Source: Physcia stellaris (taxonomy: Eukaryota; Ascomycota; Lecanoromycetes; Caliciales; Physciaceae). From it: a stretch of DNA of 23,354 nt. Below the pieces are notes generated by a model, which saw only the letters and a list, made by a program, of their open reading frames with translations, made no database searches and had not been told where the DNA came from. Shown piece by piece: positions 1 to 23,354 of this stretch. A program made the translations under genes and the position numbers. How positions within the stretch are numbered: the stretch's first letter is position 1; the number at the start of each line of letters is the position of its first letter. The stretch spans positions 1 to 23,354 of the forward strand of contig JABSSW010000115.1 of assembly GCA_018902385.1 (NCBI GenBank), written 5' to 3'.

Positions 1-479
1 TACATTTCGATTTTCGAATTTTTGATTTTAAATGTTGATCAATTTTCAATTCAACATTTGTTACGCATTTTAATCAGAATGAAACACAACGAAAAAATGA
101 ATTTGTTTCGTTGTCGTCAAATAACGATGTCGTTGTGTTTTGTTATTATCGATTCAAACGTGATTTTCAAACAAATGAAAATGCGTATCAAAATGTTGAA
201 AATTAAATCAAAATTTAATAATTTTAAAATATTTTGATCAAAACGAAAACGAAACGTGATCGAAATCGTCGTCGTCGTCGCAACAACGATAATCAATATG
301 AAAATTCGTTTCGTATATCAAAAACGAATCGCACGATCAAAATTTCAAACACGCAAAATGTAAAAATTAAAACAATTTGAAAAATTGATTGCGTGATTGC
401 GAAAATATATCGTTTTCGATTTTGTTAATTTTCAAACAAAAATGAAAACAAGTTAATCGACGTCGTTTTTGATGACGAC

Positions 480-830
480 AAAAAAAATCAATGACGTAAT
501 TATGTTGATGCTCAATTTGAAAAACAAACATGAAAACAATATAAAAATTATTTGTTAACGTTGTTTAACAATTCGATAATTCGTATCATTTAACGCGATT
601 ATTGTTATTGAAAATGTCAAACAATTGTTTCGACAAAACGTTGTTGCGTTCAATCAATATTTAATCAAATTGTGAAACAAATTGAAACGTCGCGTTTCGA
701 ACGAAAAATGACAAAAAAATTGTGATCAAAATTCATGTTTTCATTTGTATCAAATGTGTAAAAATGCGAAATCATGAAATCGATTTTTTTATTTCAAATT
801 AATCGTTAATTTGTTAATTGCGAAACAATT
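480..830 (+). pseudogene. gag: Gag (capsid) remnant of chromovirus 1
   Basis: A weakly conserved stretch resembling the retrotransposon Gag domain. From base 501, in frame with a TGA at 531 read as Trp, the residues read FEKQTWKQYKNYLLTLFNN. This fits the 'W-x2-F/Y-x3-L' core seen in fungal gypsy Gag proteins. It is followed by Gln- and Lys-rich helical sequence up to about 700. Gag would form the virus-like particle in the cytoplasm. A Cys/His cluster near 743-785 could be a decayed zinc knuckle, but its spacing is off. Position just upstream of the protease supports the assignment; sequence similarity alone is modest. Confidence 0.45.
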
Positions 831-1213
831 GTTTGTCGACGATAATACGTTAAATAAATCGTCGAACAATATCACGAAAACAAAACAAAATAATGAAAAT
901 GATCAAAAAATCAAAAAAATAACAATGACGACGACAAAATAAAAACAAAAAATTTCGCGTAACAAATTTGTTGAATTTGACAACGTTTAAAAAGTAATCA
1001 AAATCGATTTTCGAAATCGCAACAAAATCAACAAAAAAAATGAAAATCGAAATCAAAATCACAATTTCGTATTTTCAAAATTCGAAAAACCGCGTGTTTT
1101 TCATGTATGCACAAATCGAATCATAACAAATGATTTTGTGTGTGAAAAATTATACGCAAATTTAAAAAAACGCAATCAAAATCAAAATCAATCGTCGAAA
1201 AAAAACGAATTTA

Positions 1214-1396
1214 ATGTTTGTCGTTGAAACATTGAAAATAAATTTAAAACGAAATAAATTTCGTGTTTTGATAATCACGTTATCAATCAAAACATTTGTT
1301 ACGCAAACAAACAATACAACAATTATTTGTTTGATTGATTTTGATGTCGAAACGAATTTATATACAAATTTTTGTCAAACAAATACAATTGTTTAA
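1214..1396 (+). pseudogene. Retropepsin-like aspartic protease remnant of chromovirus 1
   Basis: The protein segment contains CLIDFDVETNL with the Asp codon at 1337-1339. It aligns with the active-site region of gypsy proteases, usually L-I/V-D-S-G-A-E-A-N/x-L/F. Here the catalytic Asp survives, but Ser-Gly-Ala has become Phe-Asp-Val, which C-to-T and G-to-A changes explain. The enzyme normally cleaves the Gag-Pol polyprotein inside the particle. It lies between the gag remnant and RT, as expected. Only about 60 codons remain open; downstream sequence to 1900 is broken by stops in every frame and contains the rest of the protease and linker. Confidence 0.6.
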
Positions 1397-1923
1397 ATTC
1401 AAAAAAATTGTTAAACAATATGTAAAAACTGTTGACGATCGTGTAATTTAAATGTATGAACATTATGAAAACGTGTCGTATCATGACACGAAATAATGAA
1501 AAACATGTAAAAAAAAACAAAATGTTGATTTTGAACGATTGATATGCGTGAATACGACATGATTTTTGAATATTTATGATTGAATATTGTCGATTTTGAC
1601 ATTCGCTGATATGATCGTCGTTAATTATATCGTGATGATAATTATGAAAATTCAAACAAATTTCAATCGATTTTTGTTTTGCGAAAAATTCGTTGATTTA
1701 ATTATGATTGTCGTTGCGAATCGCGATCGTGTTTATGTCGCAATGTCATATCAAATATTTTTTTAACACAAAATTATCAATATCGAAAACGAAATGTTGT
1801 TCGTTGTGATGCGTTATAAATGAATCGCAACGATCATGATTTTGATGTTATAAAAAATTAATCGAAATATTTTCCAAACGTTGTCGAACAGTTTGAATAA
1901 ATGATCGAATCGAACATGTTATT

Positions 1924-2836
1924 GATTTGCAATTAAACAAAAAATCGCGTTTTGAATTTATATACAATATGTCACATAACGAATTTATTGTTATACGCAA
2001 TTATTTCGAAAACAGCGTTGACGAAAAAATGAATTCGTTTTTCAACGTATTTGCGAAAACATTTGTGTTGTTTGTCGAAAATCAAATGACAATTTACGTT
2101 TATGTGTGAATTATCGAAAATTGATGAAATCGCGATCAAAAACAATTATTTATTGTCGTTATTGTTTGAGACGCTAAAACGTTTCGCGAATGTTAAACAT
2201 TTTATCAAAATAAACATTCGAAATGCGTATCGTAAAATTCGTATTTGTCGAAAAAATGAATGAAAAACTGTTTTCGTATTCGTTATGAACAATACGAATA
2301 TCAAATGATGTTTTCGATTTTGTAACGTTTTTGCTATTTTTAATTTTATGTTTGAAGCATTATAAATACATTGACGTTTTTTTTTTTTTTTTTTTTTTGC
2401 GTGATGTATTTGAATGATATGTTAATTTATTTCGAAAATGAACAATAACATTGAAAACATATTCGTTTGATGTTTCAAACGTTGTTACGTTATCGTTTGT
2501 ATGTCAAATTGAAAAAATGCGAATTGTTAAAAAAATCAATTTTTAAATTTCGTTGTTGAAAATGATATTCAAATGAAACGTTCGCGTATAAACGTAATCG
2601 TCGATTGATTTGAATTCGAAAATGTTAAAAATATGATGATTTTTCTAAATTTTGCTGAATTTTATAAACGTTTTGTTAAAAAATTTTCGCAAATCGTAAC
2701 ATCATTTACGAATTTGACACGTGATGCGAAAAAAAAAAATCGTTTTTCATTTGTTATGACAAAGAAAATTAAAATTGCGTTTAACGAATTCAAAATTAAA
2801 TTCACGATTGTTTTTATTTTTACGCATTACGATTGA
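1924..2836 (+). pseudogene. pol: Reverse transcriptase domain of chromovirus 1
   Basis: RT normally copies element RNA into DNA. The domain starts with FEFIYNMSHNEFIVIRNYFE (1945 onward; gypsy consensus 'xGPIYNMSxxEL..LREYL'). It shifts frame near 2083, continues as LRLCVNYRKL (2094 onward; 'LRLCVDYRxLN'), then FIKINIRNAYRKIRI (2201 onward; 'xTKLDLRxAYHxIRI'). The active-site box reads YLND at 2407-2418 instead of YLDD, followed by MLIYFENE. The motif-A Asp is Asn (AAC, 2213-2215). The domain ends with the conserved FLNFAEFYKRFVKKFSQI block at 2640 and on. A run of 22 T at 2377-2398 replaces the residues just before the catalytic box. Both catalytic changes are G-to-A after a purine. Certainly dead. 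Confidence 0.9.
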
Positions 2837-3330
2837 AAAACGAAATTACGTATGAAAATTGATGTTTTTGATCGCGAAACAAATAATATGTTCAATCAAA
2901 AAAACAAAAACGATCAATAACATTTTATTGTGTTTTTCAATTATAAAATCAAAAAAAACAAAAATTAATTGAAATACGCATGACAAAAAATTGTATACAA
3001 TAATATTTGATTTCAAAAATTGAAAACATTATTTGCAAAATAGCAAACATTTTATTCGCGTTATTTTTGATCATAACAATTTTCGATATTTTATGACAAT
3101 TAAAAAATTCAATGCGAAACAAATTCGCTGAATTGAAAAATTAATTGCGTTTGATTTCAATATAAAATATCGCAAAAACAAATTGAATTTTGCGAACGCG
3201 TCGTCGAAAAAATTTAATTTTATGAAATCGAACGATAACGACAAAAACAATAATAAATTTTTATTTATTTTGCGAAACAAATTTCGCAATCAAAATTATC
3301 AATTTGATTTGCAAAACGATTAACGTGTGT
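2837..3330 (+). pseudogene. pol: RNase H domain of chromovirus 1
   Basis: RNase H removes the RNA strand of the RNA:DNA hybrid during reverse transcription. Directly after the RT connection the frame reads THYD, TGA (2834, former Trp), then KTKLRMKIDVFD, matching the 'x-DASD' start of gypsy RNase H with its first Asp retained. A frameshift in the poly-A near 2951-2964 leads to NTHDKKLYTI, where the consensus has DKELxAI, so the catalytic Glu is now Lys. VIFDHNNFRYF (near 3069-3101) keeps the third acidic residue. RQIRW is encoded with TGA at 3129. Other TGA codons at Trp positions occur at 2970 and 3021. A Lys/Asn-rich tail runs to about 3320. Confidence 0.88.
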
Positions 3331-3710
3331 TTGTTTTAATCAAATTTGCAACATCGATAACGCGATTGCGTAACATTGTTACGATAAATATTCGAAATAT
3401 TGTTTCGAATGAAAAAGTTTTCGATAAACATGTTTGCAAAATTTTAAATATTGTCGCATTTCGATTTTTAATTTATCAAATTATGAAATCGAAAAAATTT
3501 TATTTGAAATTGCGAAAATCAATAATTGCGTAATTATTCAAATTACAACAAAAAAACGTTTTTGTTGTTGAGAAACAATGACGTCAAAAATACGCAAACA
3601 AACAAAACGAATTTTCGAAATAAAATGTTGAAAAAAATGAATTGTTTCGTCGTGATTTCGCAATTTATGTGTTTAAAAATTTCGTTACAAAACAAAAAAT
3701 TTTTCGTATG
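3331..3710 (+). pseudogene. pol: RNase H-integrase linker of chromovirus 1
   Basis: About 380 bases between the RNase H and integrase domains. The stretch 3327-3533 stays open for 68 codons and 3526-3711 for 61 codons in a shifted frame. Neither has a recognisable motif, which is normal for the variable linker of gypsy polyproteins. I assign it to pol from position and strand only. Confidence 0.5.
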
Positions 3711-4700
3711 AATTATGACGATTTAAATGTTGAACATTTTGCGCGAACAAAAATCGAAAATTTTGTGCAACGTAAATATTTTTAATTTGATATGATTAAA
3801 AAAATAACAAATTATGTACGCATTTGTTCAAATTGTTAACGAATACGAATTTATCGACATAAATTTTATGACGACATAATAGCAATTTTATCAAATGAAA
3901 AACAATCATTTGATACAATTATCATGAATTTCATTACAAATATATTTTTTGCTAAAAATTTTTATATTGAAAAAATTAGCGATTCAATATTAATATTGAT
4001 AAACAAATTAACGAAATACGCAACGTACATAACAATCACAAAAACGATAAACGCGATAAATTTTGCGAATTTGTTATGACGAAAATTCGTATGTCGTCAT
4101 GAAATGATGCGTAACATTATTTCGAATCGAAAATTTTTTTTCACAAACAATTTCTGATTTATTTTGTGCTAAAATTTGAAAACGAAACGTAAATTTAACA
4201 TTGTTTTTCATTCACAAACAAATGAACAAACAAAAAAACAAAATGTTGTGTTCGAACATTATTTGCGTGTGTATTGCAATTTCAAACAAAATAATTGATC
4301 AAAATTGTTATTCATGACACAATTTATTTACAATAATAATAAACATTCAAACATTGATCAAACGTTTCAAAAATTTTTGTCTGAATACGTTGCGACGTTA
4401 AACAGCGATTTTGTGAACAATTTTCAAAAAAAAAAACAACATTTGCAACAAACAAAACAAAAACGTTGCGAAACAATTGAACGCATTTAATGAATTTGTG
4501 AAAAACGATTTTCGAACAACAAATCAAATATTATAATGAAAATCATATAATGAAAAATTTTAAATTTGAAAAAAAAATGTTGTTGCGTGATATAAATATA
4601 CGTACATTGCGTTTCAAAAAAAAATGATAAACAATTAAATTTTTCGAAATTGTCAAAAAAATAAATACGCAAATTTACGAATTTGATTTGTTTAAACAAT
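3711..4700 (+). pseudogene. pol: Integrase of chromovirus 1 (H2C2 zinc domain and rve core)
   Basis: Integrase would insert the cDNA copy into the genome. The zinc-binding part is visible: a Tyr (3714) in place of the first His, His at 3735-3737 in VEHFARTK, and Cys-x2-Cys in ICSNC (3822-3836). The core begins with SFDTIIMNFITN, where the consensus is MDF. The first catalytic Asp is AAT (Asn) at 3927-3929. Near 4115 a SNRK motif replaces SDRG, and QTNEQTKKQN near 4222-4245 replaces QTDGQTERQN, so all three catalytic acids are lost. The conserved FIYNNNKHSNI block (consensus AEFAYNN) follows at 4321. Later segments include LLRDININTLR and FEIVKKINTQIYEFDL, typical of the C-terminal integrase region. 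Confidence 0.88.
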
Positions 4701-4841
4701 ATGAATTAAATACATTTTGTGTTTCATTTTTTTTATTCGAATTTTGATATAATCGTGACGACGCAAATTCAAAATCAATCGATATTAATGAAAAACGAAA
4801 AAAAATGAAAAATATCGCAAATGCTAAACAAACGCATTAAA

Positions 4842-5105
4842 AAAAATCAATTTGAATATTTTATTGCATAAATAAATTCATCGTCATATGAAAATTCGTG
4901 AAAATCAATGAAACATTTCGAAAATACGAAAAACGCAATTGTCAAATTCGAAAATACGCGCGAATTACGCAAATTTAAAAAAATTGCGAAACGTCGAAAA
5001 ACAAACAAATTCAAAACGAAATCGAACGAAAAATTTTCAACAAAAAAACAAACACGTCAGTTTCTAAAACTGAAAAAACGTGAACGATTCAAAAAACAAA
5101 AATAA
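4842..5105 (+). pseudogene. pol: Chromodomain at the C terminus of chromovirus 1 Pol
   Basis: Reading from 4842, with TAA at 4869 and TGA at 4899 standing for Trp, gives FEYFIA-W-INSSSYENS-W-KSMKHFENTKNAIVKF. This matches the chromodomain core 'Y-L-V-K-W-x-G-Y-x-x-x-x-x-S/T-W-E-P-x-x-x-L'. In chromoviruses this domain reads histone H3 lysine-9 methylation and directs integration into heterochromatin. Both conserved aromatic Trp codons are now stops. After the domain come about 45 Lys/Arg-rich residues ending in TAA at 5103-5105, which I take as the end of Pol. Confident from motif plus position directly after integrase. Confidence 0.85.
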
Positions 5106-5428
5106 CAATAATTACGACGCAAAAACACAAATAATAAAATGATATTGTAAATTGTTTTTGATTACATGCACAATTTGCATACAACAAACAAACAACAAAA
5201 CAACACGTCACAACAAAAAACAAAATTCAACATTTAACGAGAAAAAACACAACAACAAACAAAATCATGCGATCATTAAATCGAAAAAAACACGAAAATG
5301 TAAATTAACGCGTCAATAAATTTATCAATCAAAATTCATATCACAACAATCAAATCGATTTCGATTGCGTCATGTTAATTGTTCTCGCGTTTAATGAAAT
5401 TTTGTTTATCATTGATTACGCGATTTGA
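5106..5428. other. AT-rich stretch after chromovirus 1, no gene
   Basis: Purine-rich on the plus strand, with many short 'aacaaac' motifs between 5180 and 5270. The 3' LTR of chromovirus 1 should begin here if present, but with the 5' LTR outside the window it cannot be delimited. No reading frame or structure recognised. Confidence 0.5.
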
Positions 5429-5667
5429 TTGAATCGAAATCGACGTAAAAACAAACGCGACAACAAACGAATTTGTTTGCGATGCAAACGCAACGAAATC
5501 AACAAACGAAACAAACGCAAACGAAACGAAAACGAAAAAAATCAAAAAAACGACGCGAAAATCGAAAAACGAAACAAAAAAATTCGAATTTTTTTTTTCG
5601 AACAAAGACAAAAGTAAACGAAAAAAAAAATGACAAACAAAACGATTTTTTTTTCAACGAGTTTTGA
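5429..5667 (+). pseudogene. Unrecognised Lys/Arg/Asn-rich coding remnant
   Basis: Two overlapping plus frames (5429-5617 and 5473-5667) encode low-complexity Lys, Arg, Asn and Glu. Under the mutation process inferred here, Glu becomes Lys and Asp becomes Asn, so the ancestor could have been a mixed-charge, possibly coiled-coil or disordered protein. One frame contains ICLRCKRNEINK with a Cys-x2-Cys pair, too little to name. It could equally be non-coding purine-rich DNA. Confidence 0.25.
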
Positions 5668-5735
5668 CGTGACAATTAACGCAAATTTACGAAAAAAAAT
5701 CTTGATAAAAAATAACGAATTTTTTTTATGTCATT

Positions 5736-6470
5736 TTGTTTCATGTTAATCACGTTATGCGTCAAAAATCGTATGTTATTATTTTTTCAATGTTGAAAAA
5801 TCAATTTCAAATTGTCGTTATTTTTGACAGCGAAAATGCGAACGTTGTTTTGCAATTTGTAAAAAACATTGTTTTTTTCACAATAATGAAAATTTTTGTT
5901 GCAAAATTCGCATTTGTTTTGTTTGTTTTCGTCAAAAAAAACGCAAACGTGTTTTGAATTATAACGAAATTTTCGAACGCAACGTTGACATTATATATGA
6001 ATTGATTTTGTTACGCGTCAAATTGATATGAAACAACAATGTGTGTTTGTTTATTGAATTTGATTACAATGCGATCGCGAACATCGCGATTCGAATATAT
6101 ATTTGTCGTATTGATTGTATTCAACAATTCGAACGTAAAAAAATTATCAATTTAATACGCGTCAACAACGTCATCGTTATTTGTAATACATTTACAGCAA
6201 AAACAACAAATTGCATGTTTTTGCGAAACGTAACAAACAACGACGAAAAAAAAATGAAATAATGAATTTATTGTATCGTTATCACACGCATTGCATTGTC
6301 GACGTTCGAAAATCAATTTCGTCGTCATTGAAATATTATTGCGACAACATCATCATTTGCAAAAACGATGTGATAATTGTACAAACAACGATATATCATA
6401 TTGATATCATTGTCGCAATAATTGTTGTTATCGCAAAAACAAAAAAAATCAAATGAAATATTTATCATGT
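5736..6470 (+). pseudogene. Unrecognised Cys-containing coding remnant
   Basis: Frame 5736-5957 is open for 73 codons and continues past TGA at 5955 (consistent with Trp) into LYMN-W-FCYASN-W. The other frame then reads 6041-6262, ending in ICRIDCIQQFERKKIINLIR and VICNTFTAKTTNCMF. Long open stretches broken mainly by TGA suggest real coding ancestry. A Cys-x3-Cys pair and a Cys-x7-Cys spacing are visible, but I cannot match them to a family. It sits between the two chromovirus remnants and could be ORF1 of a retroelement or a separate sequence. Function not assigned. Confidence 0.35.
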
Positions 6471-6950
6471 TATGAAATAAAAATGTTAAAAAAAAATTCA
6501 AAAAATGAATTGAAAAATTGAAATAAACATTCATTAACACGCGACGCGATTTATTTCGATTCGATTTCACAACACGAACGCGATATTTGAAATTACATTA
6601 CATTATTATTGCTATTTCTATTTATTGAATTACAATGTTTCAAAATTACACGTCGAAAACACAAAATTATTTACAAAACAACGTTGTTGCGATACATTTC
6701 TGATATATTATAAAAACATTGATAATTGACGCGAAAAATCGATCATTCAGAAAAAAAACAATTGTAATGAAACGAAATCGATCAAGCGAACGCTAAAACG
6801 CTGTGAATTTAATTGTCGCATTTCGTGTTTATATATTCGAAATTTCACGAATTTCTTTTTGTTTTTTTAACAATTAATTTTATTATGTGTTTAACATTTA
6901 TTATAACAATTCATATTATTATTCGCACATTCTAATCACGCAATGTTTAC
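6471..6950. other. AT-rich stretch, no gene recognised
   Basis: No frame resembles RT, which should precede the RNase H tail of chromovirus 2. RT and most of RNase H are therefore absent, so chromovirus 2 is 5'-truncated or was replaced here by unrelated sequence. The stretch 6770-6850 keeps a few CT/AG steps, unlike its surroundings. Confidence 0.45.
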
Positions 6951-6954
6951 ATTT

Positions 6955-7735
6955 TTACAAATATCGCAATTTGAAACAATTTATGATCACAATTAAATTG
7001 TCGTCACGTCAAATTCGATGAATTCAAAAATTGAATCGATATAATTTTTTAATCGATTATCGTTTCGATAACAAAAATTTTGTTGACGAATTTTCAAAAC
7101 GATTTGATCACATGATGATTATTGAAAAAAACGTCGAAAACAATCGTCAAATTTTGAAACAATTGCAAAAATCATTGATCGCAAATTCGAAACGTTTCGA
7201 AAAAATGCGAATAAATGCGATCAAAATCATGAATGCGATGCATGTCATGAAACGATTCATGAATGCGATACATAACATGAAACGTTAATCGCATTTAAAT
7301 AATTTAACAATCGAATCAATCAACGTTGTTTCGAAAACATTTAATTCAAAAAATTTAAAACGAAATCGAATTTCAATCAACGTTGTTTCGAAAATATTCG
7401 ATTCAAAAAATTCAAAAAATTCGAAACATTCGATTGAACAAAAATCAAACGTGACATTCATAAAACGAAAAATTTTTGTGTTAAAATCAACGATTGTATT
7501 TGAATGCGCAATATATAAAATTCGAATACAAATTGTTTTACGAGAAAAAACGACATATAACGACGAGTCAACACAATCATTGTTGAATTTCGTTCGTGAT
7601 TTGATCGTTAAAAATCAATTCGTTTTTAAAACATGTCGAAAATTAATTATTTCGAAAACAAAAACAAATCATTGACAACACAAAAATGAATTTTTGTATT
7701 ACGATGACGTCGTTTACATTTCAAAAAATTTGCGT
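6955..7735 (+). pseudogene. pol: RNase H tail and linker of chromovirus 2
   Basis: The frame reads NLKQFMITIKLSSRQIR, then TGA (7019, consensus Trp), then IQKLNRYNFLIDYRFDNKNFVDEFSKRFDH. This corresponds to the end of gypsy RNase H ('NLxxFM..K.L..RQ.RW...L..F.F.I.YRPGxxNxxADALSRR'). A helical Lys/Asn-rich linker follows with two short internal duplications: an 18-residue-scale repeat around NAMHVMKRF / NAIHNMKR (7222-7288) and a 57-bp period repeat starting at 7316 and 7373. The first RNase H acidic residues lie in missing upstream sequence. The linker ends just before the integrase zinc domain. Confidence 0.8.
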
Positions 7736-8460
7736 GAAAACGTTATTCGTGTCAATCACGATAATTCGTTCGTTGATTACTTCGACATCGAACGAACGTT
7801 AAAATTGATACGTCGAAAATATTATTGATCGAATCAAAATTTTATCGAAATTTTTAAAATGCGACAACAAATCAAAAAACATTGTGAAACATGCATCGTT
7901 TGCAAACGAAACAAGATTGCACAACACAAATCATACGACGAAGTTTTTTTTTCGATTTTTGAATTTAAATGAATTGATTTTTTCATGAATTTCGTAACAA
8001 AATTTTTTTCAAACAAAACGTGAAACGAAACGATTTACGATTCGATTTTAATGATTGTGAATCGTTTAACGAAAATGATTTATTACATATCAATAATTAA
8101 AACGATTTTCGCAAAAAAATTGATCGAAATTTTATTTCGCGAAATCATTCGATTTCACGATTTTTTTTCGTCAATCGTTATCGACAAAAATTTCATTTTC
8201 ATATTCAAATACAACGATGCGTTGTGTTACGACTTGAAAATCAAACGTAAATTGTCAATCGTTTTTTATTTTCAAATCGATAAACAAATCGAGCGAATGA
8301 ACAACGTCATAAAACAATTTTTTCGCGTTTTCGTCAATTTCAAACAAAATAATTGAATAAATATGTTGTTCATGATCGAATTCGTTTACAACAACAACAA
8401 ACACGCATTCACAAATTTTTTTCGTTCGAAATCATGTTTAAATATTCGTTTTGCATGTTT
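7736..8460 (+). pseudogene. pol: Integrase of chromovirus 2 (zinc domain and catalytic core)
   Basis: RVNHDNSFVDYFDIERTLKLIRRKYY followed by TGA (7826) matches 'HDDPLAGHFGxxRTLELxRRxYxW'; the second His is Tyr. HCETCIVC at 7880-7903 supplies the Cys pair. The core reads DFFMNFVTKF (consensus 'MDFV'), with the first catalytic Asp now Asn (AAT, 7988-7990). The second Asp (GAC, 8183-8185, in SSIVIDK) and the Glu (GAG, 8291-8293, in KQIERMN) are retained. VNRLTKM and EFVYNNNKHAF are further standard integrase blocks. Loss of one catalytic acid and several stops make it inactive. It is better preserved than the integrase of chromovirus 1, which has lost all three. Confidence 0.9.
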
Positions 8461-8469
8461 TTCGAAAAA

Positions 8470-9281
8470 AAACATGAAACAAAAAAATTAAATTCAAATT
8501 CGCAAAGAAACACGTTAAACATTTAGTTGAATTATTTCGAATATTAAAAAATAATTTATTCGTGACACAACAACAACAAACGATGTACAAAAACGAACGT
8601 ACGAAATCAATATCATACAACGTCGAAAATTACGTGAATTTGAACGATAAAAACATCAAAATTAAACGAAACAAAAAGTTGAAATGAAAATTCTTTGAAT
8701 TATTTCAAATTTTAAAAACTATAAAAAATCAAATTTATCGTTTAGATTTATTCAAACGTTGACGTATTCACGACGTTTTTCACGTTTTTTTGAAAAAATT
8801 CAATTTTTAAAAAAAAAAAAAACATACGTCACATTTTTTTGAATTTTCGTATCAAATTGAAAATATTGAATTCGACGAAAACATGAAAATGAAAATCACG
8901 AAAAAATTTTATGAAATCGAAATCATTAAAAATAACAAAATTTTCAAAACAAATGAAATTTCAAACAAACTTTACAACGAATTCGATTTTTACTATTTGA
9001 TAAAATAAAAAAATTATGAAAACGCGATTTGAAAATTTGCATCGTTTGTCAAACATTTTCGAAAAATTTTGCGACAATTTCACAACGAAAATTCAAAAAA
9101 TTTGATGTCAATAAAAAAACAAATCATCGAAAATTACGAAAAAAATGAATTAAAATATTTATTGCATGTTAATACATTTTCGTTTTCAAAAATTTTGTGT
9201 ATTATTTATTGTTTAAAATTTACGACGTATGAAAAATTGAATTGTATTAAAAACATTTTCAAAATTTGTTGTTCGATTTGA
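8470..9281 (+). pseudogene. pol: Integrase C-terminal region and chromodomain of chromovirus 2
   Basis: After a frameshift the plus frame reads KLK, TGA (8685, Trp), KFFELFQIL, matching 'KLxxKFxGPFxIL'. RIHDVFHVF (8763-8789) matches 'IHxVFHVSLL'. The chromodomain then reads FYYLIK, TAA (9006, Trp), KNYENAI, TGA (9030, Trp), KFASFVKHFRKILRQFH, close to the consensus 'YYLVKWKGYxxxTWEPxxxLxxxxxLLxxFH'. It would direct integration toward methylated histone H3K9 chromatin. As in chromovirus 1, the two core Trp codons are stops, the first TAA and the second TGA. An open frame runs on to 9281 without recognisable motifs. Confidence 0.88.
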
Positions 9282-9290
9282 TCGAACGAT

Positions 9291-10094
9291 AAATCATTAA
9301 ATAAAAAATGTGAAATGAAATAAAAAAAAATTCGAAATTTGAATATCAATGCGATCGCGATTAATGAACGTTTATCGCGTTATATATTTTTTTCATGATA
9401 TCGATGTTAATATTCGAAATAAAAAAATGAAAAAATAAAAAAATGTTCGAATTCAAAATTTTCTGTCAATAAATCAAATGTCAATCATTATATCGAAAAT
9501 TGTGAATAATACGAAATTAAACATTCGATTATAAAAACAACAAACAATTGATTTATCAAATTATGTTTTTTTTGAATTATTCAAAAAAATGTTTTTTCAA
9601 ATTTTTAACGCAAATTGATTATTGAATTCGAACAAAAATAGTTCGAAATGCGAAAATCACGATCATAATGATTTTTCAAATTAATGTAACGTCAAAACAA
9701 ACAAAATACGTCAAAATTTCTGTTAATATGTTGATTTCAAAAAATTTCGATATTTAAAAAAATGTATGTAAAAAATAAAAATTCAAAATTTTCGAAAATG
9801 CGATTCGTATTTCGTCAAACAATTCGATTATCGAAATTCGAATGATTTCGAAAAAAATTAATTTCAATCATTTTACAATTCGATCAACGATAAATTCAAC
9901 GAATTCATATTGTCAGTCGAAATCGCTCGAATTCGTACGATTGAATAAATAAAATATGAATAAAAAACAATTGCAAAACGTAATTTGTTTTGTAACGATT
10001 AATAAATCAATATATTACATTTCAAATTATACATTTTTGATGTCAATAATTCATTAAATTATAATATTTCTAATACGAAATTTACAATTTTATC
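9291..10094. other. AT-rich stretch, no gene recognised
   Basis: Short A and T runs, no frame longer than about 50 codons with plausible composition, and no internal repeat that I can align. Likely contains the decayed 3' end of chromovirus 2. Confidence 0.5.
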
Positions 10095-10798
10095 GTGACG
10101 AAATATTGTGTAATTGAATCGAAACAAACAAATTTTAATTTTTTCGCAAATCAAAATGCGAAAAAAAAAACGTTTTGCGAAAAATTTTCGTTTTTTTTTT
10201 CATGTCGTTTTGCGTGTTTTTACAAACAACATCACGAAATCAATTTTCAATCATTTGTTTTTTGTATTGTTCGTTTAAAATTTGAAAATGTTAACAATCG
10301 ATATATGAAATGTTTTTTTTGTGTACATCAATTAAAATACGATTACAAATTTTTTCGACTTTGTAATTTCAAAATTATATTGTTTTTTTGATGTCAAATA
10401 TCAATTTTTAAAATTTATTGTCATTTTGAACGTTTTACGTTTCGAAATATTGAAATATTTTTTTTTTTAAATTCGTTTTCGATTTTTTTCATTTCGTTCA
10501 TGAAATTTTGCAAAATTTGAAATTTTGATTGACAATATTTTTTTATTTCGAAATTTCATGAAATCGAGTAGAAAACACAAACGCATATTTGCAATTTCAA
10601 TTACGAATTGTTTCGCGACAGATTGATATTCGTTTGTTTGAAAATCGACATTAAAAATATCATTGATGAAAAAACGTTAAAAAATTCGAAAAATATCGTC
10701 GTGAAAAAATTGAAAACAACAACGATATACAGAAAAAATCGAAAAAACAACGAAAAAACGACAATATCATGATAAAATGAACGAAAAAAAAAATTCAA
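10095..10798 (+). pseudogene. Unrecognised coding remnant with Cys pairs
   Basis: An open frame of 98 codons (10095-10391) ends at TGA and the same frame continues in pieces to about 10798. It includes CRFACFYK and MKCFFCVHQLKYDYKFFRLC, with Cys-x3-Cys and Cys-x2-Cys spacing. The later part (NIIDEKTLKNSKNIVVKKLK) looks helical. Abundant Phe is expected from loss of C in Ser, Pro and Leu codons, so the ancestor was probably Pro/Ser-rich with a small Cys cluster. I do not recognise the family. It may be an ORF1-type protein of a retroelement or a fragment of a captured gene. Confidence 0.35.
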
Positions 10799-11040
10799 TC
10801 AAAAAAAAACGAAAATCGAAACGAAAAAAAAAACACGCGTGATAAAATTAACACAATACATATGTTGACAAAACAAATCGCGACGCGTCAAATTTTGTTT
10901 ATTATATTGTTTTTATAAATAACGTTGTTGTTTATATATATCAATCAACAATTTGTTACAACAATTAATTAATTTCAAAAAAATTCACAAAATTGAAATT
11001 GACATGAAAAAAAAAAATAAACATCAATTATTCAAAAAGT

Positions 11041-11569: not shown

Positions 11570-11778
11570 TGTTGAAATACAGTTTTCGCAAATGTGTTGT
11601 GCAAATGTTGCAATCAAAATTCAATTAATATAATTTGACGAAAACAAAATTAATGCGTTTTTGTTGAAATTAGTGCTTTGACATTCGCACATTGTTTGTG
11701 TTTTCATTTTGCATGTATGTTATCATAACAACGAAATTCAAAACAATAAAATGATAATCATTTATGATTTTTTCAATA
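11570..11778 (+). repeat. 5' LTR of the 11570 element
   Basis: 209 bp, direct repeat of 14666-14874, with 7 differences and no indels. Five differences are AG/AA or CT/TT, one is CA/TA (11763) and one is G/T (near 11693). Only three CT/AG steps remain in this copy. No primer-binding site can be recognised after it. Confidence 0.85.
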
Positions 11779-12165
11779 GATTATGAAAATCGAATTAACA
11801 GTTTTCGTTACATTTAGTATTAATTACAGCATGTCAGAAAACGAAACGCAATAATATTTAGTCGTCGAACAATACAACAATCGATTTGCAATATTTCAGC
11901 AATAATCAATTTCATTGAGAATATTCAATTTTGTCAAATTCGAAATCGACTCAATTGCATTGACAGCATTCAATATTTTGATACAAATCAATTTTCGAAC
12001 ATTTTATCTATTTTATTATTTTTCGAAACAGTCAGTTTTCGATTTATTTATTCATCGTACAAATTTTTACGAATTCGCTTATTTACGAATTTCTTGCGAA
12101 TTTCTTACGAATTCGCGTATATTTATTCGAATTTCTACGCGAAATCTATTTCTCATTCGATCAAA

Positions 12166-13374
12166 ATGACGATTTTTACTTTCACGACATTTGATTTTTT
12201 ATCTTTTTCGTTTGTTTTTTGCGATCACGTGTTTGAAAATCATTTCATGACGCAAAATTTCAAAACGTTTTATAACATGCATTTGATTGATGATGTTAAG
12301 ATTTTGCGATACAATTGATTCACTCAAGCGAAAAAAACACAAGAAAATTATCATTTACGAAAACATGAATTGAAAATCAAAAACAAACTCAAAAAGAAAA
12401 TGAAGCAATTGACAAAGCAAAAGAAAAAAATTCGTCTGATCAAAAAACGAGCAAAAAAATATACGTGCAAACGTTGCAAACATTCGATTAAATTCGATAA
12501 CAACATCAAGTTTCACGAACATATTCGTATTCGTCATGCAAAGAAGTCGAAATCAATCGTTTCATCGATTTTCGAATCGAAATTTTTTATATTTTTTCAA
12601 TCGATCATTTCGTCATCTTTTACGTCATCGAAATCGATAATCGAATCATCAATTACATCTCTCTCGTCATCGAAACTCATATTTTTCTCGATGCTCGCAT
12701 CAGAAATTGTACGCGAGCGTTCAAAGAGTACATTTTTTTCAAAATTCTCATCAGAATCATTGTCGGCTGCAACATCAAGAAAGTCGATATTTTGAACAGA
12801 AATCGTTTCACGATTTGTTGCGTCGAAACTCTTTCGTTTTTCGATTGCGACACTCAAATCGATGTGCAAATTCTCGAAAAATGCAAACATTGTTTGTTCG
12901 TTTATTTCGTTTCGAATTTTTACATCGAGATTTTATTTCATCGTGAACGATTTGTTTCGCATGTTCGTTGAAAAGTCGAATTCATTTGATTTGCAACGAC
13001 ATCAAATGCGTTCGTTCTTTTCGCGCGATTTTGACAAATGCAATCGCAAATGCAATTTCGCAAACAAATGTGATTTCATACAAAGTCGCATTACGTTATT
13101 TTTTCATGCGATGATCACATTTGTTTTCAAATCGATCAAATTCGAAGCATTTGAATCAACACATGTTCGCGAAAATTTTTCGCGTCAATTTTCGATTTTT
13201 TCACGATCGATTTCATCTATTTTCTTTTCTTTTCGATTTTCAAAGATTTTTCGTTCGTTTTCTGTTTGCAAACATTGTCAAAAACGTTTCGTCATTTATT
13301 GATTTATTGATTAAGTCATGTCAATTGTCGCAAAAGTCGAGAACAATGAAATATTCAAGAAAATGCGTTATTGA
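12166..13374 (+). pseudogene. C2H2 zinc-finger protein of the 11570 LTR element, broken at Trp codons
   Basis: Starting at the ATG of 12166 (MTIFTFTTFDF), one frame runs about 402 codons to TGA at 13372. It is interrupted only by TGA at 12316, 12793 and 13300 and TAA at 13312. These stops lie in contexts such as VIY-stop-FID-stop-V where Trp is plausible. A C2H2-type finger lies at residues 99-124: Y-T-C-K-R-C, then a 14-residue spacer, H-x4-H (ligands Cys101, Cys104, His119, His124). It is preceded by a Lys-rich helix (residues 70-98) and followed by a Ser-rich region. A Cys cluster (CNRKCNFANKC) and a second Cys-x2-Cys pair (VCKHC, residue 368) occur later. Fungal repeat-associated C2H2 proteins of this layout exist, but their role is unclear; a gag-like nucleic-acid-binding role is inference. 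An in-frame ATG at 12094 is an alternative start. Confidence 0.72.
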
Positions 13375-14658
13375 CGTTTCGTTTCTTTTCACTTTATTTT
13401 GAAAGAATATTGATTTTTTTATTTCGAAGAAATCACTATTTTGAAAAAGTTAACATGTTGTTTGTTTGTTTGTTTTGCTCGTTCGTTTTTTTTATTAATC
13501 GTTGATCGATCTGAAAAAATTAAAAATTGTTGTTGTTGTTGTTTTAATGAATTCGATGTTTCGTCTTTCTCGTTCTGTGATCTGAAAAAGCTTTACAAAT
13601 TGTTGTATGTTTTGTTTATTTGTTTTATTGTTTTACTAATGAGTAAAGACTTATTTCTGTTGTGATTTCGTCTTGATTTAACACGAAAATTCATTTATTT
13701 TTTACACTTTGCGACTTCGTTATTCGTTCGATAAATACGAAAGAAAAAAATGACAATACAGCTCAAAGAAACGTACTGTACGTACAATTGTTAGAAAAGA
13801 AAAAACATTCTACTAGACAATACAATTTCGAAAAAGTGTATCGATCAAGATGCTCACGTTCAGATAATATCGTTTCGGAAAAGCGTATTGTATAAAGTCA
13901 TTACATACTCGTTGAAGTCACATAGTATCGCTTCGAAAAAACGTATTATGTAATCATTACATTTCGATTTTGCAGAGCAGAAACTCGATCAAAAAAAACT
14001 GAAAATATTTGATCTTTTCGCATATTAATCGATTTGATTCTCTGACAGATTTTAGTCAAATCAGAAAAGCTCGATTTTGCATTCTTTGCATCGATGTATG
14101 TTCGCAATGCATGTCGCGCATTCGATGCATTGTTTTTTTTATCGATTTCTCGATTATCTGACATATCTTATGAACTTTCTACAATCAAATTGCATAAATA
14201 TTGAATCATTGATGTCGCAAGAAGTATTTGAAAATTCTGAAACACAATGATGCTACATGATGTGATTCGCATTCTCGTTCGTCATCGCAAAACTCAAACA
14301 TAGAATATTTATTTCATGATGTATCGTTTAATCAATTCTAAATATCAAATTTCACATTTATGTTTCATCTCGTCGAGACATTCAGAACGTCGCAATTTTT
14401 CAGATATTCGATCGCACGTTTTACAATTCGACTTTACGTCATATTTGAAGTCAATAAGTCATCGAATTTCGATTCGTTCGTTTTTGCAACTTTCGCATCG
14501 ATGCACGATCTGATTCTAAAATTCATCGCGTTGAAGAAATTTGTTCGAAAACTTCAAACAACGTATCGTTGAAAAAGTCACATCGTTGAAAAAGTTTGCA
14601 CGAAAGTTTTTGACTGAACTCGTCAAAATACATAACAGAAAACACAAACGATTGTTGT
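13375..14658. other. 3' interior of the 11570 element, no coding region supported
   Basis: The CT and AG steps are well preserved. The minus strand has a 72-codon frame (13946-14164) rich in Asp, Ser and Lys with no known motif. Plus frames at 13441-13665 and 14316-14572 are short, and their composition reflects T-rich sequence. I do not call these as genes. Confidence 0.45.
13816..13963 (+). repeat. Three imperfect ~40-bp direct repeats
   Basis: Copies near 13816, 13867 and 13925 share the form 'atcgnttcgnaaaancgtattntnta'. The last two extend to a common 'tcattacat'. Differences are mostly G/A after A or G. They lie in the non-coding interior of the LTR element. Confidence 0.55.
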
Positions 14659-14665
14659 AAAAAAA
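14659..14665 (+). promoter_or_regulatory. Possible polypurine tract before the 3' LTR
   Basis: Seven A immediately upstream of the 3' LTR. A mixed A/G polypurine tract, the plus-strand primer of LTR elements, would collapse to poly-A under loss of G after purines. Position is right, but the sequence is too simple to be sure. Confidence 0.35.
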
Positions 14666-14874
14666 TGTTGAAATACAATTTTCGCAAATGTGTTGTGCAA
14701 ATGTTGCAATCAGAATTCAATTAATATAATTTGACGAAAACAAAATTAATGCGTTTTTGTTGAAATTAATGTTTTGACATTCGCACATTTTTTGTGTTTT
14801 CATTCTGCATGTATGTTATCATAACAACGAAATTCAAAACAATAAAATGATAATCATTCATGATTTTTTCAATA
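14666..14874 (+). repeat. 3' LTR of the 11570 element
   Basis: 209 bp, matches 11570-11778. Only two CT/AG steps remain in this copy. Ends CAATA directly before the right target-site copy. Confidence 0.85.
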
Positions 14875-18424: not shown

Positions 18425-18606
18425 TGTAAAACGCGTGCCTAGAACTCAATAGATAGCATAACGAGAATATTTGATCTAAGAAGCAAATATTTACATGAAA
18501 ATCGAATGTCAGAAGTAAAAATGTGTGTCAAGTCATCATTAGTTCCGATATGGACTTTCGCTGATAAGATAAGTTCTCAATCGAGATTTCAGACATGCTC
18601 GTAACA
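18425..18606. repeat. Left LTR of the miniature element
   Basis: 182 bp, aligned without gaps to 20053-20234 at offset 1628. It differs at 16 positions, all C/T before a pyrimidine or G/A after a purine. Confidence 0.9.
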
Positions 18607-19563
18607 TTATTTTTTCGTTTTTTTCAAGCTTCGTTTCGAAGCGAATAATTCATTTTTTTTATCGATCGGCATTGCGAAGAAATTCGTTGATTGTGACTCA
18701 GATATCAGTCTGATCAGTGTTGAAGCTGAAAGTTTCAAGGCAAATGCGATAGACGTGAAGAGATAAATTCGAAAGCAGAAAAAGAAGTGCGAAAACAAAA
18801 AATATAAGATCACGAGAATGAGAACTTTGTTGAGAATCTTGATCGCGAAAATATTTGCAGATTAGTATGATGAAACGATCGATGTCTCGAGCAGAACAAA
18901 AGCGACAAAACGATATCGATTTCGCGAACGTGTGCTGTTTTAAACTTTTCGGATTTGAGCTTTTCGAGTTTTTATTAATCGGCGCGTTTTGATTGATTGC
19001 AAGTTTTGAAACAGAAAATCATTGACGACGACGAGCAAACGATTGCGAAGAAGGCGAATTGATTTGATCGTGTAACAAATTTATTGAATCGATGTTTTTC
19101 ATCTTTTCATGCTATTTGCTTTTGTATCGCTGTATGTAATAGGTTCATCTTTTGATGTTGATTGCAAAGATGTAAAGAATCGAACGCATGCGTTTTTGAG
19201 ATCGTTTTAGTCGACTAATTAAGAATTTCATTGAAGCAAGTTCATTAATCGTTGTAGCGAACTCATTGAGTGTCATTGACGCAAACAGATTGCTGAGATT
19301 GACGAAGCGAAACGAAACGTAATTCAAATTTTTTGTTTGAGATTTTGAATGATTGTTTGTTGATTTGATGTGAAATTGTTGTTGTGTGTGATTTCTATTT
19401 TTCTTTTTCACAAGCGATGTTTCAACGCTTCAAGAAGATGAGTATTGTAGAAGTCGTTCGAGAGTAGATGGACTGATTGACTCGAAAAAGCACGAAAGTC
19501 GTTTATTGATTGAATGTCGACTGATTTCGACGAACAAGAAAATCGACTATTGATTGTCATTTT

Positions 19564-19697
19564 CGCAGATTCACGATCATTTTCGTTGATTCACGATGCG
19601 TCAAGTGAAAGTAAAATGCAATCATCGTTTTCAAAGAAAAAACTTATTCATTCACGCAGATTCACGATCATTTTCGCTGACTCACGTCGTTTCGTGA
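19564..19697 (+). repeat. Internal direct repeat in the miniature element
   Basis: The 22-base core at 19564-19585 recurs at 19655-19676, a 91-bp period, with similar flanking 'tga(t/c)tcacg'. Related 'gattcacga' and 'ttcacga' motifs recur up to 19790. Confidence 0.65.
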
Positions 19698-20052
19698 AGG
19701 TTCGTTTTGTTGCTTCATTCACGAAAATTCGTTCTGTGATTTCGTGATTTCTCTCGAGAGAACTTTCGTTTGTTTTTCACGAAGAATTTCGATCTGACGA
19801 TTTTATTTAATTACTCGCGTATTTCGACGAGCAATTTTTGCAGAATTTGATCGAATGTTTCTTAGTTTCGCAGAATTCAGAGCGAGAAATCGCTGTGCTA
19901 GAGACAGTGAATTATCGTCACTGTTGATTAATGAAGATTCGTGCTGAAGATGTGCAATCGTCACGAATTGAGTCGATTTTGTTTCTTTTTACTCGCAGAT
20001 CGCTTGCGAGTGTGAAGTTTACATCGTTCGTCACGATGAAGATCAAATATAA

Positions 20053-20234
20053 TGTAAGGCGCGTGTTTAGAACTCAATAAATAGCATAACGAGAATATTT
20101 GATTTAAGAAACAAATATTTACATGAAAATCGAATGTCAGAAATAGAAGTGTGTGTCAAGTCATCATTAGTCTCGATATGAATTCTCGCTGATAAGATAA
20201 ATTCTCAATCGAGATTTCAGACATGCTCGTAACA
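20053..20234. repeat. Right LTR of the miniature element
   Basis: Direct repeat of 18425-18606. Retains the AGG at 20057-20059 where the left copy has AAA, while the left copy keeps the CCT where this one has TTT. Both copies have thus been hit separately. Confidence 0.9.
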
Positions 20235-20989: not shown

Positions 20990-21229
20990 TTTAACTTTTT
21001 CAAAGAATTGAAAATATAATTGTTTAATTAAAAATTTAATAAAACGCAAAATGTTCAGAAACAATCACGTCGACGTTGATAATATTATAACATATATTCA
21101 TAAATAAATTTCAATCGAGAAATATTTTTTTCAACAATTAAAATCATCAATACAATTATTTTTTCGACGTTCGATGTTATTATTCTTTGAAAATGTTAAA
21201 ACGTACGATTAAAATCATATATGTATACG
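20990..21229. other. AT-rich stretch, no gene
   Basis: Between the MULE tail stop and the foldback element. The 3' inverted repeat of the MULE would be expected in this region but is not recognisable. Confidence 0.45.
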
Positions 21230-21240
21230 AATTTCATTTT

Positions 21241-21385
21241 TTCGCATTCAATTTGTGAAATTTAACGCGTTTTTTTTATTAAAACTATTATTATTTCACG
21301 AAATATACATATATTTCAATATAATTTAATAGAAAATATCAATAATATACAAGTATTTAATCGCTGCAATATAAAGTCGTTTCGA
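21241..21385 (+). repeat. Left arm of foldback element
   Basis: Inverted copy of 21479-21623. Five differences are CpY-type transitions and one is at a CpG (21267 region). Confidence 0.88.
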
Positions 21386-21478
21386 AATCTATTGAAATCA
21401 TTAATATATTTTGAATCGTTTTCACACGTTTTCAAATCTTATTATAAAGCAAAACATTTGTATTGCATTTTTTTTTAA

Positions 21479-21623
21479 TCGAAACGATTTTATATTGCAA
21501 CGATTAAATACTTGTATACTATTGATATTTTCTACTAAATTATATTGAAATATATGTATATTTCGTGAAATAATAATAATTTTAATAAAAAAAACGTGTT
21601 AAATTTCACAAATTGAATGCGAA
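21479..21623 (-). repeat. Right arm of foldback element
   Basis: Reverse complement of the left arm. Ends GCGAA at 21619-21623. Confidence 0.88.
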
Positions 21624-21639
21624 AAGAATGAATTATTAT

Positions 21640-22945
21640 TGATGTTACGTGAAAATGCAAAATGCGTGAAACAGATTCACATCATGATATTTGTTTTTCG
21701 TGTTATTTGATGTTTAAAAACGAATTTTCTTTTTCGTTGAAATTCGTTATTTCGAAAATCAAACATTATATATTTTATATTCGCATAACGTTATCAACAA
21801 TACGTCATTATTTTTTGAAAATTCAACAAAATACGACATCAAACATTTTTACATTTTAAAAAATTGTCATTGAAAACGATGCACATGATTTTCGCATGTA
21901 ATTCAGATTGTTTTTTTTCACGAAAAAATGAAAAAATTGAAAAAATTAAAATTGCATAAATGTGATTATCGAAATTTTGAATAAAAAAAATAAAATCAAA
22001 AATTCAAATATTTGAAACATGAATGAAAATATTAATTACAATAATTTCGTCATTGATAATTTGAGTCTTGATATTATTATTTGTAATATAAACATTTTGT
22101 ATAAAAATGAATATATTGTTTTGTAAAATACAAAAAATTTAATATTGAATGCAAAAATTAATATTGAAAATGTATTTGTTGTATTATATGATATTTACAT
22201 TTCAATGTTAAATTCAAATATGTTAATTTAGAATTTTAATATTAACAATACAAAACAAATGTATTTCATTTCATTTTTTTTTCGTTTGAAACAATCATTT
22301 TGTTCATTTATAATTCGATCAATTCGAAAAACAATTTTTCAAAAATCAAATCATGCATGACAATTATGATAAAATTCTTGATATTTTATGATAAACAAAT
22401 TTCAAATGATTTCGATAAACAAATTCAAAAAAATTTGAAAAATAAACATTATTTTTGCGAAAATGTGACGATAAAATAAAACGATTAAATAGAAATCAAT
22501 GAATATATTCAATGTTAAATGTTGATTTTCGTAAAACGATAATTGACACAAATGCAAAAATTTCGAAAAGAAAAAAAAATTGAAAAAAAAAATTGAAAAA
22601 GAAAAAAACATGTAAATTTTCTTGAATAACGTATCGTGTTTATATATGCAAATAAATGATCAATGATTTAACGAAATAAAATCGACTTGTTAATTTAATA
22701 ATTAAAATTGCGATTTAAACTGAAAATGATAAATTTTCATTCAGAAAATGTTCGAATTCGATTCGTGTGATAAGCATTTGATGTTACAATTGAGAAAATC
22801 GAACAATAACAATTCTGAATTCAATAAAAACGTTATAACAATGTCTGATTATCGAATTCGCATTTCGATATCTAATTGATTAATTTGAAATCAATGTTAA
22901 TAAATGAAATATAACAAACAACAAACATCATTTTTTGTTGTTGTG
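21640..22945. other. Extremely AT-rich stretch, no gene recognised
   Basis: About 1.3 kb. A 65-codon plus frame (21662-21859) and a 69-codon minus frame (22402-22611, nearly all Phe/Leu/Ile) have no motif and reflect composition. The stretch 22020-22250 is especially poor in C and G, with many 'aatatt' motifs. No repeats could be aligned. Confidence 0.5.
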
Positions 22946-22949
22946 ATGA

Positions 22950-23354
22950 CGATATTGAGAATTCGTGAATATTTTGCGCAAAATACGAAATTGAAAAAAA
23001 AAATTGTCAATTGATTTGATTGAAAAATAATAAACGCGATAAAACAACGATTGAAAATAACAAAATAAAAACGATGTGATAATATCGTGAAAAAAAAAAT
23101 TATGATTGAATAAAAATGAAAAAATCGTTTGAATTGTGATCGTTTGCGCGAAATTGAAAAAAAAAATCGAAAAAAAAATTATGATAAAATAAAAATGAAA
23201 TGATCGCATCGTGAAAAAAAAAAATTTAAAAAAAAATCGTAACAAAATAAAAACGAAATGATTGTTCGAATTGTGATCGTCTAAACGAAATTAAAAAAAA
23301 AACAAAAAAATCGTGACATGATAAAAACGAAATGATCGTTTGAATTGTAATCGT
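22950..23354 (+). repeat. Degenerate tandem repeat, ~65-75 bp units, continues past window end
   Basis: Units contain 'aaatgatcgtttgaattgtgatcgt', then 'gcgaaattgaaaaaaaaa' and 'atcgtgataaaataaaaacg'. Recognisable anchors occur near 22960, 23125, 23195, 23262 and 23337; the last two are 75 bp apart. Copies differ by length of A runs and by G/A changes. Probably a minisatellite, or repeats at the edge of another element. The minus-strand 105-codon frame across it (22928-23245) is a by-product of T-rich repeats. Confidence 0.7.

What the first reader, a model, noticed from the sequence alone, without database searches (positions are those of the whole stretch)
1..23354. RIP-like hypermutation with CpY (CpT and CpC) specificity that spares CpA and CpG
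Seen: in bases 1-600, of 79 C, 41 are CG, 37 CA, 1 CT and 0 CC; there are 2 AG and 0 GG. The same depletion is obvious by eye in most of the window on both strands. Known: RIP in Neurospora and most Pezizomycotina acts mainly on CpA; other fungi show CpG or TCG preference. A strong CpT/CpC target with CpA intact is, as far as I recall, not the described mode. Inference: this genome has a RIP-type defence, or another repeat-directed deaminase or methylation pathway, with altered 3' nucleotide preference.
Basis: partly seen in the sequence, partly recalled or inferred. Interest (0 to 1): 0.92.

Follow-up and report, generated by a model that had tools for sequence, protein, structure and literature searches.

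The report
Lichen RIP-like hypermutation at CpC/CpT
A lichen fungus wrecks its repeated DNA by turning C into T almost only where the next base is C or T, nearly the reverse of the target preference described for this genome defence in other fungi, so the usual tests for it miss it here.

Summary
Confirmed and extended. The window is from Physcia stellaris, a lichen-forming fungus. Its 23.4 kb hold 4 CC and 12 GG. Twenty 10-kb stretches on nine contigs of the genome are normal. Comparing less- with more-mutated copies of three Copia-type groups gives C-to-T at CpC 678/709, CpT 592/797, CpA 42/923, CpG 32/782. Inside the window, two terminal repeats of one element differ at 16 sites, all CpC/CpT; none of 39 CpA/CpG sites changed. 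One copy's composition shows loss of CpC on one strand, CpT intact. Classical RIP indices flag 0 of 45 windows. In two pairs 24 of 25 stop codons come from tryptophan TGG. The genome has one DIM-2-like and two RID-like methyltransferases; one RID forms a separate clade with a changed stretch after its catalytic cysteine. Best reading: RIP-type mutation with order CpC>CpT>>CpA~CpG; enzyme and timing not shown. In Neurospora CpA comes first and CpC last (PMC5496416, passage).

The parts
1..23354 (.). whole stretch carries the CpC/CpT (GpG/ApG) depletion, GC 26%
   Evidence: shuffles
1..6960 (+). part of an RT-bearing, LTR-type retroelement (type inferred). 2090-6800 has 16 near-full-length matches elsewhere in the genome at 85-94%. 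An RVT_1 remnant is inferred at about 2076-2546 from the place of RVT_1 matches in sister copies; 6761-6960 recurs about 265-280 bases upstream of position 1 in 7 of 7 fetched copies (LTR-like)
1875..12765 (.). 10,891-base run without a single CC or GG
11567..14874 (+). LTR-like element, 212-base terminal direct repeats (11567-11778 and 14663-14874, 96% identical), less mutated at CpT; longer matches elsewhere 72-82% identical
18425..20234 (+). short LTR-like element, least mutated part of the window (GC 35.5%)
18425..18606 (+). left terminal repeat; differs from the right one at 16 sites, all transitions at CpC/CpT
20053..20234 (+). right terminal repeat of the same element (91% identical to the left)
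21225..21639 (.). inverted repeat, 161-base arms, 93% complementary, 93-base spacer, inside a CC/GG-free segment

Best explanation
The window is a nest of retroelements in Physcia stellaris mutated by a RIP-type, repeat-directed process that converts C to T when the 3' neighbour is a pyrimidine, in the order CpC (about 96%) > CpT (about 74%) >> CpA ~ CpG (about 4-5%). Shown: the 3' context, the dominance of transitions, normal composition in the unique DNA that was sampled, and the order CpC before CpT. Shown by composition only: one copy that lost CpC on one strand. Inferred: that a cytosine-5 methyltransferase of the RID family, which reads the 3' base, prepares the cytosine for deamination, and that this happens in the sexual cycle. 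The enzyme (RID-A, RID-B or DIM-2) is open. A consequence seen in two pairs: frames are broken almost only through tryptophan codons (TGG to TGA or TAA, 24 of 25 stops), while CAA codons, a usual stop source under CpA-type RIP, are kept.
For: Three pairs pooled: CpC 678/709, CpT 592/797, CpA 42/923, CpG 32/782 (per pair; sites that became A or G are left out of these denominators). Control pair of two open copies: 1-4% in every context. In-window terminal repeats: 16 of 16 differences at CpY, 0 of 39 CpR sites changed, Fisher p 8e-8. 20 of 20 sampled 10-kb stretches normal. Copy L044: CC 244, GG 88, but CT 235, AG 222 over 4 kb; against open L043 p 4e-13 for CC:GG and 0.61 for CT:AG. Eleven copies of the 18425-20234 family hold 0-7 CC and 0-10 GG each and differ in CT:AG ratio, 0.50 to 1.48, chi-square 39.2, 10 df, p 2e-5. 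In-frame stops: RVT_2 TGA 401, TAA 101, TAG 3 (137 matches, 4 without stops); RVT_1 250/33/3 (best 150 of 527 candidates, 10 without stops); DDE_1 44/3/0 (10 matches, 1 without stops). TGG to stop 13/13 and 11/11; CAA kept 11/11 and 11/11. Three C5-methyltransferase genes: one DIM-2-like and two RID-like.
Against: No link between any enzyme and the mutations was tested. In one of the three pairs the less-mutated copy (L044) is itself half mutated. Three open Copia copies (L046-L048), 95-97% identical over about 3 kb, are unmutated although the culture came from ascospores (PMC7513301, passages), so the process is not fully penetrant. CpA varies among old family-A copies (132 C/T columns against 47 for CpG). 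A fifth of the RVT_2 stops are TAA, whose origin was checked only in the two pairs. The second terminal-repeat pair (11567/14663) differs at 5 CpT, 1 CpA and 2 transversions. The more diverged pair L043-L045 (59% identity), left out of the pool, shows CC 121/178, CT 93/156, CA 55/187, CG 68/172, a blurred pattern. Only a small part of the genome could be read.
Confidence: 0.82

Rival explanations
1. Gradual decay of 5-methylcytosine laid down at CpH by DIM-2 in heterochromatin, with slow deamination, rather than RIP pulses.
For: A DIM-2-like gene is present (best matches 9bap/9baq, E 2e-188, of which names 9bap as DIM2); a review gives DIM-2 all CpN contexts with a CpT preference (PMC13297926, passages). 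Copies show graded CpT loss.
Against: By composition L044 lost CpC on one strand over most of 4 kb while CpT on both strands is untouched, and copies differ in strand bias; slow independent decay should hit both strands alike. The stated DIM-2 preference is CpT, not CpC first with CpA spared.
Confidence: 0.13
2. Ultraviolet-type mutation at dipyrimidines.
For: CpC and CpT are dipyrimidines, and lichens are sun-exposed (reasoning).
Against: TpC followed by a purine is also a dipyrimidine and is spared: TCA 13/301, TCG 5/273. It would not be confined to repeats.
Confidence: 0.01
3. An APOBEC/AID-type deaminase.
For: C-to-T apparently on one strand at a time.
Against: Such enzymes are recalled to read the 5' base; here the 5' base has little effect (NCC 0.94-0.97, NCT 0.64-0.79 over the four N). 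The genome was not searched for such deaminases.
Confidence: 0.02
4. Assembly or base-calling artefact from modified bases.
For: The published assembly is Nanopore-based with Illumina reads (PMC7513301, passages).
Against: Open and mutated copies of one family coexist at high contrast, C-to-T and G-to-A both reach the consensus, and copies are at different stages. A modified C would still be read as G from the other strand (reasoning). Reads were not seen.
Confidence: 0.02

Closest known systems
RIP of Neurospora crassa (RID-dependent)
   Same: C-to-T in repeated DNA on both strands; RID homologues present; open reading frames destroyed
   Different: Neurospora order is CpA>CpT>CpG>CpC (PMC5496416, passage); here CpC>CpT>>CpA~CpG. 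CpA is kept and TpA is low (TpA/ApT 0.48)
RIP of Trichoderma reesei
   Same: RID and DIM-2 orthologues, C-to-T (PMC5496416, PMC13297926, passages)
   Different: order there CpA~CpG ahead of CpT>CpC (PMC5496416, passage; one sign is lost in the held text)
CpT-rich RIP signatures (Colletotrichum truncatum Copia families, Anisogramma anomala, some Stagonospora nodorum repeats, Neurospora Tad1, RIP-capable control genomes of van Wyk et al.)
   Same: CpT-to-TpT reported as dominant or co-dominant in alignments (PMC6180176, PMC10998396, PMC2621366, PMC7882544; passages)
   Different: In the C. truncatum CpT families (CpA+TpG)/(ApC+GpT) is 0.08-0.12 and TpA/ApT 1.6-1.7, so CpA is depleted there; here the indices are 1.30 and 0.48. 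No passage seen names CpC as main target
RIP-like mutation in Basidiomycota (Microbotryum; Rhizoctonia solani AG8)
   Same: C-to-T; in the AG8 table CpC-type SNPs have the shortest mean spacing of the four CpN types (214 bp genome-wide, 301 bp in repeats; PMC4014442, passage), the nearest hint of CpC in print that was seen
   Different: the authors call the AG8 pattern CpG-biased, and its SNPs are no denser in repeats; Microbotryum is CpG-biased (PMC2621366, passage). CpG is kept here
Monilinia RIP
   Same: CpC-to-TpT double changes mentioned (PMC8959702, passage)
   Different: classical CpA-to-TpA pattern is described as the expected main one
Cladonia rangiformis RIP (another lichen fungus)
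   Same: AT-rich mutated transposons in a lichen-forming fungus
   Different: mutated DNA peaks at about 16% GC (PMC12542154, passages), lower than the 22-30% of most of this window, which suggests a broader target; the words CpA, CpC and dinucleotide do not occur there

Membership tests
RIP (repeat-induced point mutation) | C:G to T:A transitions dominate in copies | tested here: met
   family A: 294 transition against 27 transversion columns, 8 columns with more than two states; L043-L049: C>T 276, G>A 287, all other changes 55
RIP (repeat-induced point mutation) | restricted to repeated DNA | tested here: met
   20 of 20 10-kb stretches normal; four pieces of the window searched, 1-600, 2090-6800, 11500-15000 and 18200-20500, are all repeated. 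The stretches were on nine large contigs at round positions plus three methyltransferase loci, not a random sample; the rest of the window was not searched for copies
RIP (repeat-induced point mutation) | CpA as main target | tested here: not met
   CpA 42/923 converted against CpC 678/709. This is a typical rather than a defining feature; CpG-type variants are also called RIP-like in print
RIP (repeat-induced point mutation) | strand-wise episodes | tested here: met
   by composition: L044, and CT:AG heterogeneity among 11 copies; no unmutated parent of L044 was compared
RIP (repeat-induced point mutation) | a RID/Masc1-type methyltransferase in the genome | tested here: met
   two RID-like genes
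RIP (repeat-induced point mutation) | acts in the sexual phase before meiosis and needs RID | not testable with these tools
   needs crosses and gene removal
Masc1/RID methyltransferases | C5-methyltransferase motifs with ExT instead of ENV in motif VI (motif rule recalled) | tested here: met
   RID-A PPCQ and MEETF, RID-B PPCQ and LEQTS; Pfam PF00145; tree with A. flavus DmtA and others
DIM-2 | sequence relation to a solved DIM-2 | tested here: met
   L021 ORF 1064 aa, best PDB match 9bap, E 1.9e-188; 9bap is titled Apo-DIM2
UV signature | TpC before purine mutated too | tested here: not met
   TCA 13/301, TCG 5/273

The most novel reading that the evidence does not exclude
A RID paralogue clade (RID-A; the only named member in the tree besides Physcia is Heterodermia), separate from the Lecanoromycete RID clade, was retargeted from CpA to CpC/CpT, with the stretch after its catalytic cysteine rewritten (for example F fourteen residues after it in 13 of 14, where 24 of 24 others have D). 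The result would be a RIP system that breaks transposon genes almost only through tryptophan codons and that CpA-based RIP detectors do not see, so RIP may be undercounted elsewhere.
Probability: 0.35. Interest if true: 0.9.

Novelty: new variant of a known kind. Interest (0 to 1): 0.82.

Why it matters
The CpA bias is built into RIP indices and surveys; a screen of 1,239 fungal genomes concluded that RIP-like defences share it (PMC12543289, abstract and sections 8-11 read). Here the order is nearly reversed, and standard thresholds flag 0 of 45 windows, so RIP of this kind may be missed elsewhere. It offers a natural specificity switch in a genome with two RID paralogues, which makes the question of what sets RIP's target base directly testable.

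Tried and rejected
UV dipyrimidine damage: rejected by sparing of TCA and TCG. Genome-wide bias: rejected. RNA genes: no Rfam match at gathering score and no tRNA in the window. Coding content of the window: 20 of the 44 stop-to-stop pieces of 75 aa or more were scanned apart with Pfam; nothing over a curated cut-off. RID-A relatives in viral contigs: none. The target-recognition region of RID-A and RID-B was compared by eye without a clear answer; the column test skips gappy columns, so it does not speak for or against that region. The AlphaFold model of the Heterodermia RID-A (mean pLDDT 86.8) matches DNMT1, MET1, ZMET2 and DIM-2 structures but does not tell the specificity; most of the listed alignments have high rmsd. 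The pair L043-L045 (59% identity) was dropped from the pool; L047 and L048 against L055 were not pooled because L055 was already used. For the RID tree 64 of the 233 proteins found plus RID-A were chosen by hand, and 6 of these 65 were dropped because the motif I pattern did not match. PMC5602860, PMC4234444 and PMC10648671 were false word matches. That no paper with CpC as main RIP target was found rests on ten searches of the open library, of whose hits 15 papers were opened, most as passages only; Clutterbuck 2011 (cited in a passage) and other subscription papers were not seen, and PMC3897900 and PMC10170752 only as listings.
Full report
WHAT IS THERE. CC+GG is 16 against about 782 expected from shuffled sequence; CT+AG is 475 against about 2239. 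A run of 10,891 bases has no CC or GG. CpC is almost gone in every segment; CpT loss is graded between segments, while CA+TG stays at 115-134 per kb in all five segments counted.

WHERE IT IS FROM. The window is contig C115 of a 44.0 Mb assembly. A methyltransferase on contig C5 is 99% identical to a Physcia stellaris protein whose contig is 1,184,035 bases long, the length of C5. Physcia stellaris is a Lecanoromycete. Its genome paper describes a lichen fungus grown as an ascospore-derived axenic culture, 46.57 Mb, 43.3% GC (PMC7513301, passages); the whole word RIP does not occur in its held text. The held assembly is somewhat smaller than the published one.

REPEATS, NOT UNIQUE DNA. Twenty 10-kb stretches on nine contigs have GC 48-51%, CC o/e 0.88-0.99 and CT o/e 1.01-1.14. 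They were chosen at round positions on large contigs, three of them at methyltransferase genes, so they show that sampled unique DNA is spared but do not give the mutated fraction. The window is repeated: matching places, the window's own included and several being pieces of one copy, number 35 for 1-600, 43 for 2090-6800, 78 for 11500-15000 and 80 for 18200-20500; in each only part of the candidates was scored or the list is a lower bound.

DIRECTION AND CONTEXT. Copies of Copia-type elements (found with RVT_2) were compared base by base: two open copies (L043, L046) and one half-mutated copy (L044), each with a more mutated relative. L043 to L049: CpC 301/313, CpT 223/273, CpA 20/308, CpG 19/302. 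L044 to L051: 180/192, 160/264, 6/326, 0/244. L046 to L055: 199/206, 211/263, 16/290, 13/242 (strands summed by hand; sites that became A or G left out). Pooled, with sites lacking full flanks dropped: CpC 678/709, CpT 592/797, CpA 42/923, CpG 32/782. CpC exceeds CpT (p 6e-33), and CpA and CpG do not differ (p 0.72). The 5' base has little effect. Two open copies compared with each other give 1-4% in every context. The diverged pair L043-L045, not pooled, is blurred: CC 121/178, CT 93/156, CA 55/187, CG 68/172. In the window itself, the terminal repeats of the element at 18425-20234 differ at 16 sites, 12 CpT and 4 CpC; 14 CpT, 23 CpA and 16 CpG sites are unchanged. The repeats of the element at 11567-14874 differ at 5 CpT and 1 CpA sites and by two transversions.

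HOW IT PROCEEDS. L044 keeps 244 CC but only 88 GG, with CT 235 and AG 222; open copies have CC and GG nearly equal. By composition, one strand was hit at CpC only, so CpC comes first and one strand can be hit alone; no unmutated parent of L044 was at hand. Eleven copies of the 18425-20234 family have 0-7 CC and 0-10 GG each and differ in CT:AG ratio. Next to one family-A copy (L005) CC+GG recover over roughly 300 bases into normal DNA. In eight family-A copies, CpT positions have C in the minority in 108 of 108 C/T columns; CpA varies in 132 columns, with C in the majority in 120. CpA is thus a slow secondary target or decays by ordinary mutation.

CONSEQUENCE. In-frame stops in reverse transcriptase and transposase remnants are mostly TGA: 401 of 505 (RVT_2, 137 matches), 250 of 286 (RVT_1, best 150 of 527 candidates scored), 44 of 47 (DDE_1, 10 matches). 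In the two pairs with an open frame, every aligned tryptophan codon became a stop (13 of 13, 11 of 11), one further stop came from CAG, and CAA codons were kept (11 of 11, 11 of 11). CpA-type RIP would make TAA/TAG from CAA/CAG (reasoning). Both classical thresholds (TpA/ApT at least 0.89 and (CpA+TpG)/(ApC+GpT) at most 1.03; as given in PMC6180176, passage) are met by 0 of 45 one-kb windows.

WHO MAY DO IT. PF00145 has four matches at three places. L021 is DIM-2-like. L028 (RID-A) and L026 (RID-B) are RID-like. In a tree of 59 sequences RID-B sits in a Lecanoromycete clade (support 0.98) and RID-A in a separate clade of 19 (0.994). RID-A falls within a wider group of 28 that holds Eurotiomycete DmtA sequences (0.965), but the closest node to them has support 0.5 only. 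Twenty columns set 14 RID-A-clade sequences apart from 24 others; six of them (311, 314, 318, 322, 324, 326) lie 7-22 residues after the invariant cysteine 304 of the PPCQ motif, taken as the catalytic loop (naming recalled). This is a lead, not proof: RID-B and DIM-2 remain candidates.

WHAT IS KNOWN. Neurospora: CpA>CpT>CpG>CpC; T. reesei: CpA~CpG ahead of CpT>CpC (PMC5496416, passage). CpT-dominant or co-dominant signatures are reported in several fungi (PMC2621366, PMC6180176, PMC10998396, PMC7882544; passages), and in C. truncatum the indices show CpA depleted as well. In Rhizoctonia solani AG8 CpC-type SNPs are the most closely spaced of the four types, though the authors describe a CpG bias and the SNPs are not denser in repeats (PMC4014442, passage). 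A survey of 1,239 genomes states a shared CpA preference (PMC12543289, abstract and sections 8-11). Ten searches of the open library found no paper with CpC as main RIP target in what was seen; subscription papers were not seen.

VERDICT. A real, strong, repeat-directed C-to-T process with order CpC>CpT>>CpA~CpG. It works like RIP; the enzyme and the timing are inferred.

Noticed in passing
L046, L047, L048 (C8, C42, C7 of the same genome): Three open Copia-type copies, 95-97% identical over about 3 kb, show no CC/GG loss although the culture came from ascospores; the process looks leaky or the copies very recent.
   Followed up: partly
L028:3907 to about 5560 (RID-A): RID-A and its relatives group, with weak support at the closest node, with Eurotiomycete DmtA rather than with the Lecanoromycete RID clade; ancient paralogy or transfer.
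   Followed up: partly
L044 (C20:569901-573900): A copy that by composition is mutated on one strand at CpC only: a snapshot of the process half done.
   Followed up: yes
L005:3101-3400: CC+GG recover over about 300 bases at the edge of a mutated stretch, graded rather than abrupt.
   Followed up: no
window 17688-18227: Longest stop-to-stop frame (179 aa) with a weak match, below cut-off, to the Xrn1 D2/D3 domain; probably chance.
   Followed up: no
window 21225-21639: 161-base inverted repeat, 93% complementary, of unknown kind.
   Followed up: no
proteins P0047 (cf. Caloplaca), P0063 (Teloschistes), P0068 (Fulgogasparrea): A further RID-like form that falls outside both the RID-A and the RID-B clades in the tree.
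   Followed up: no
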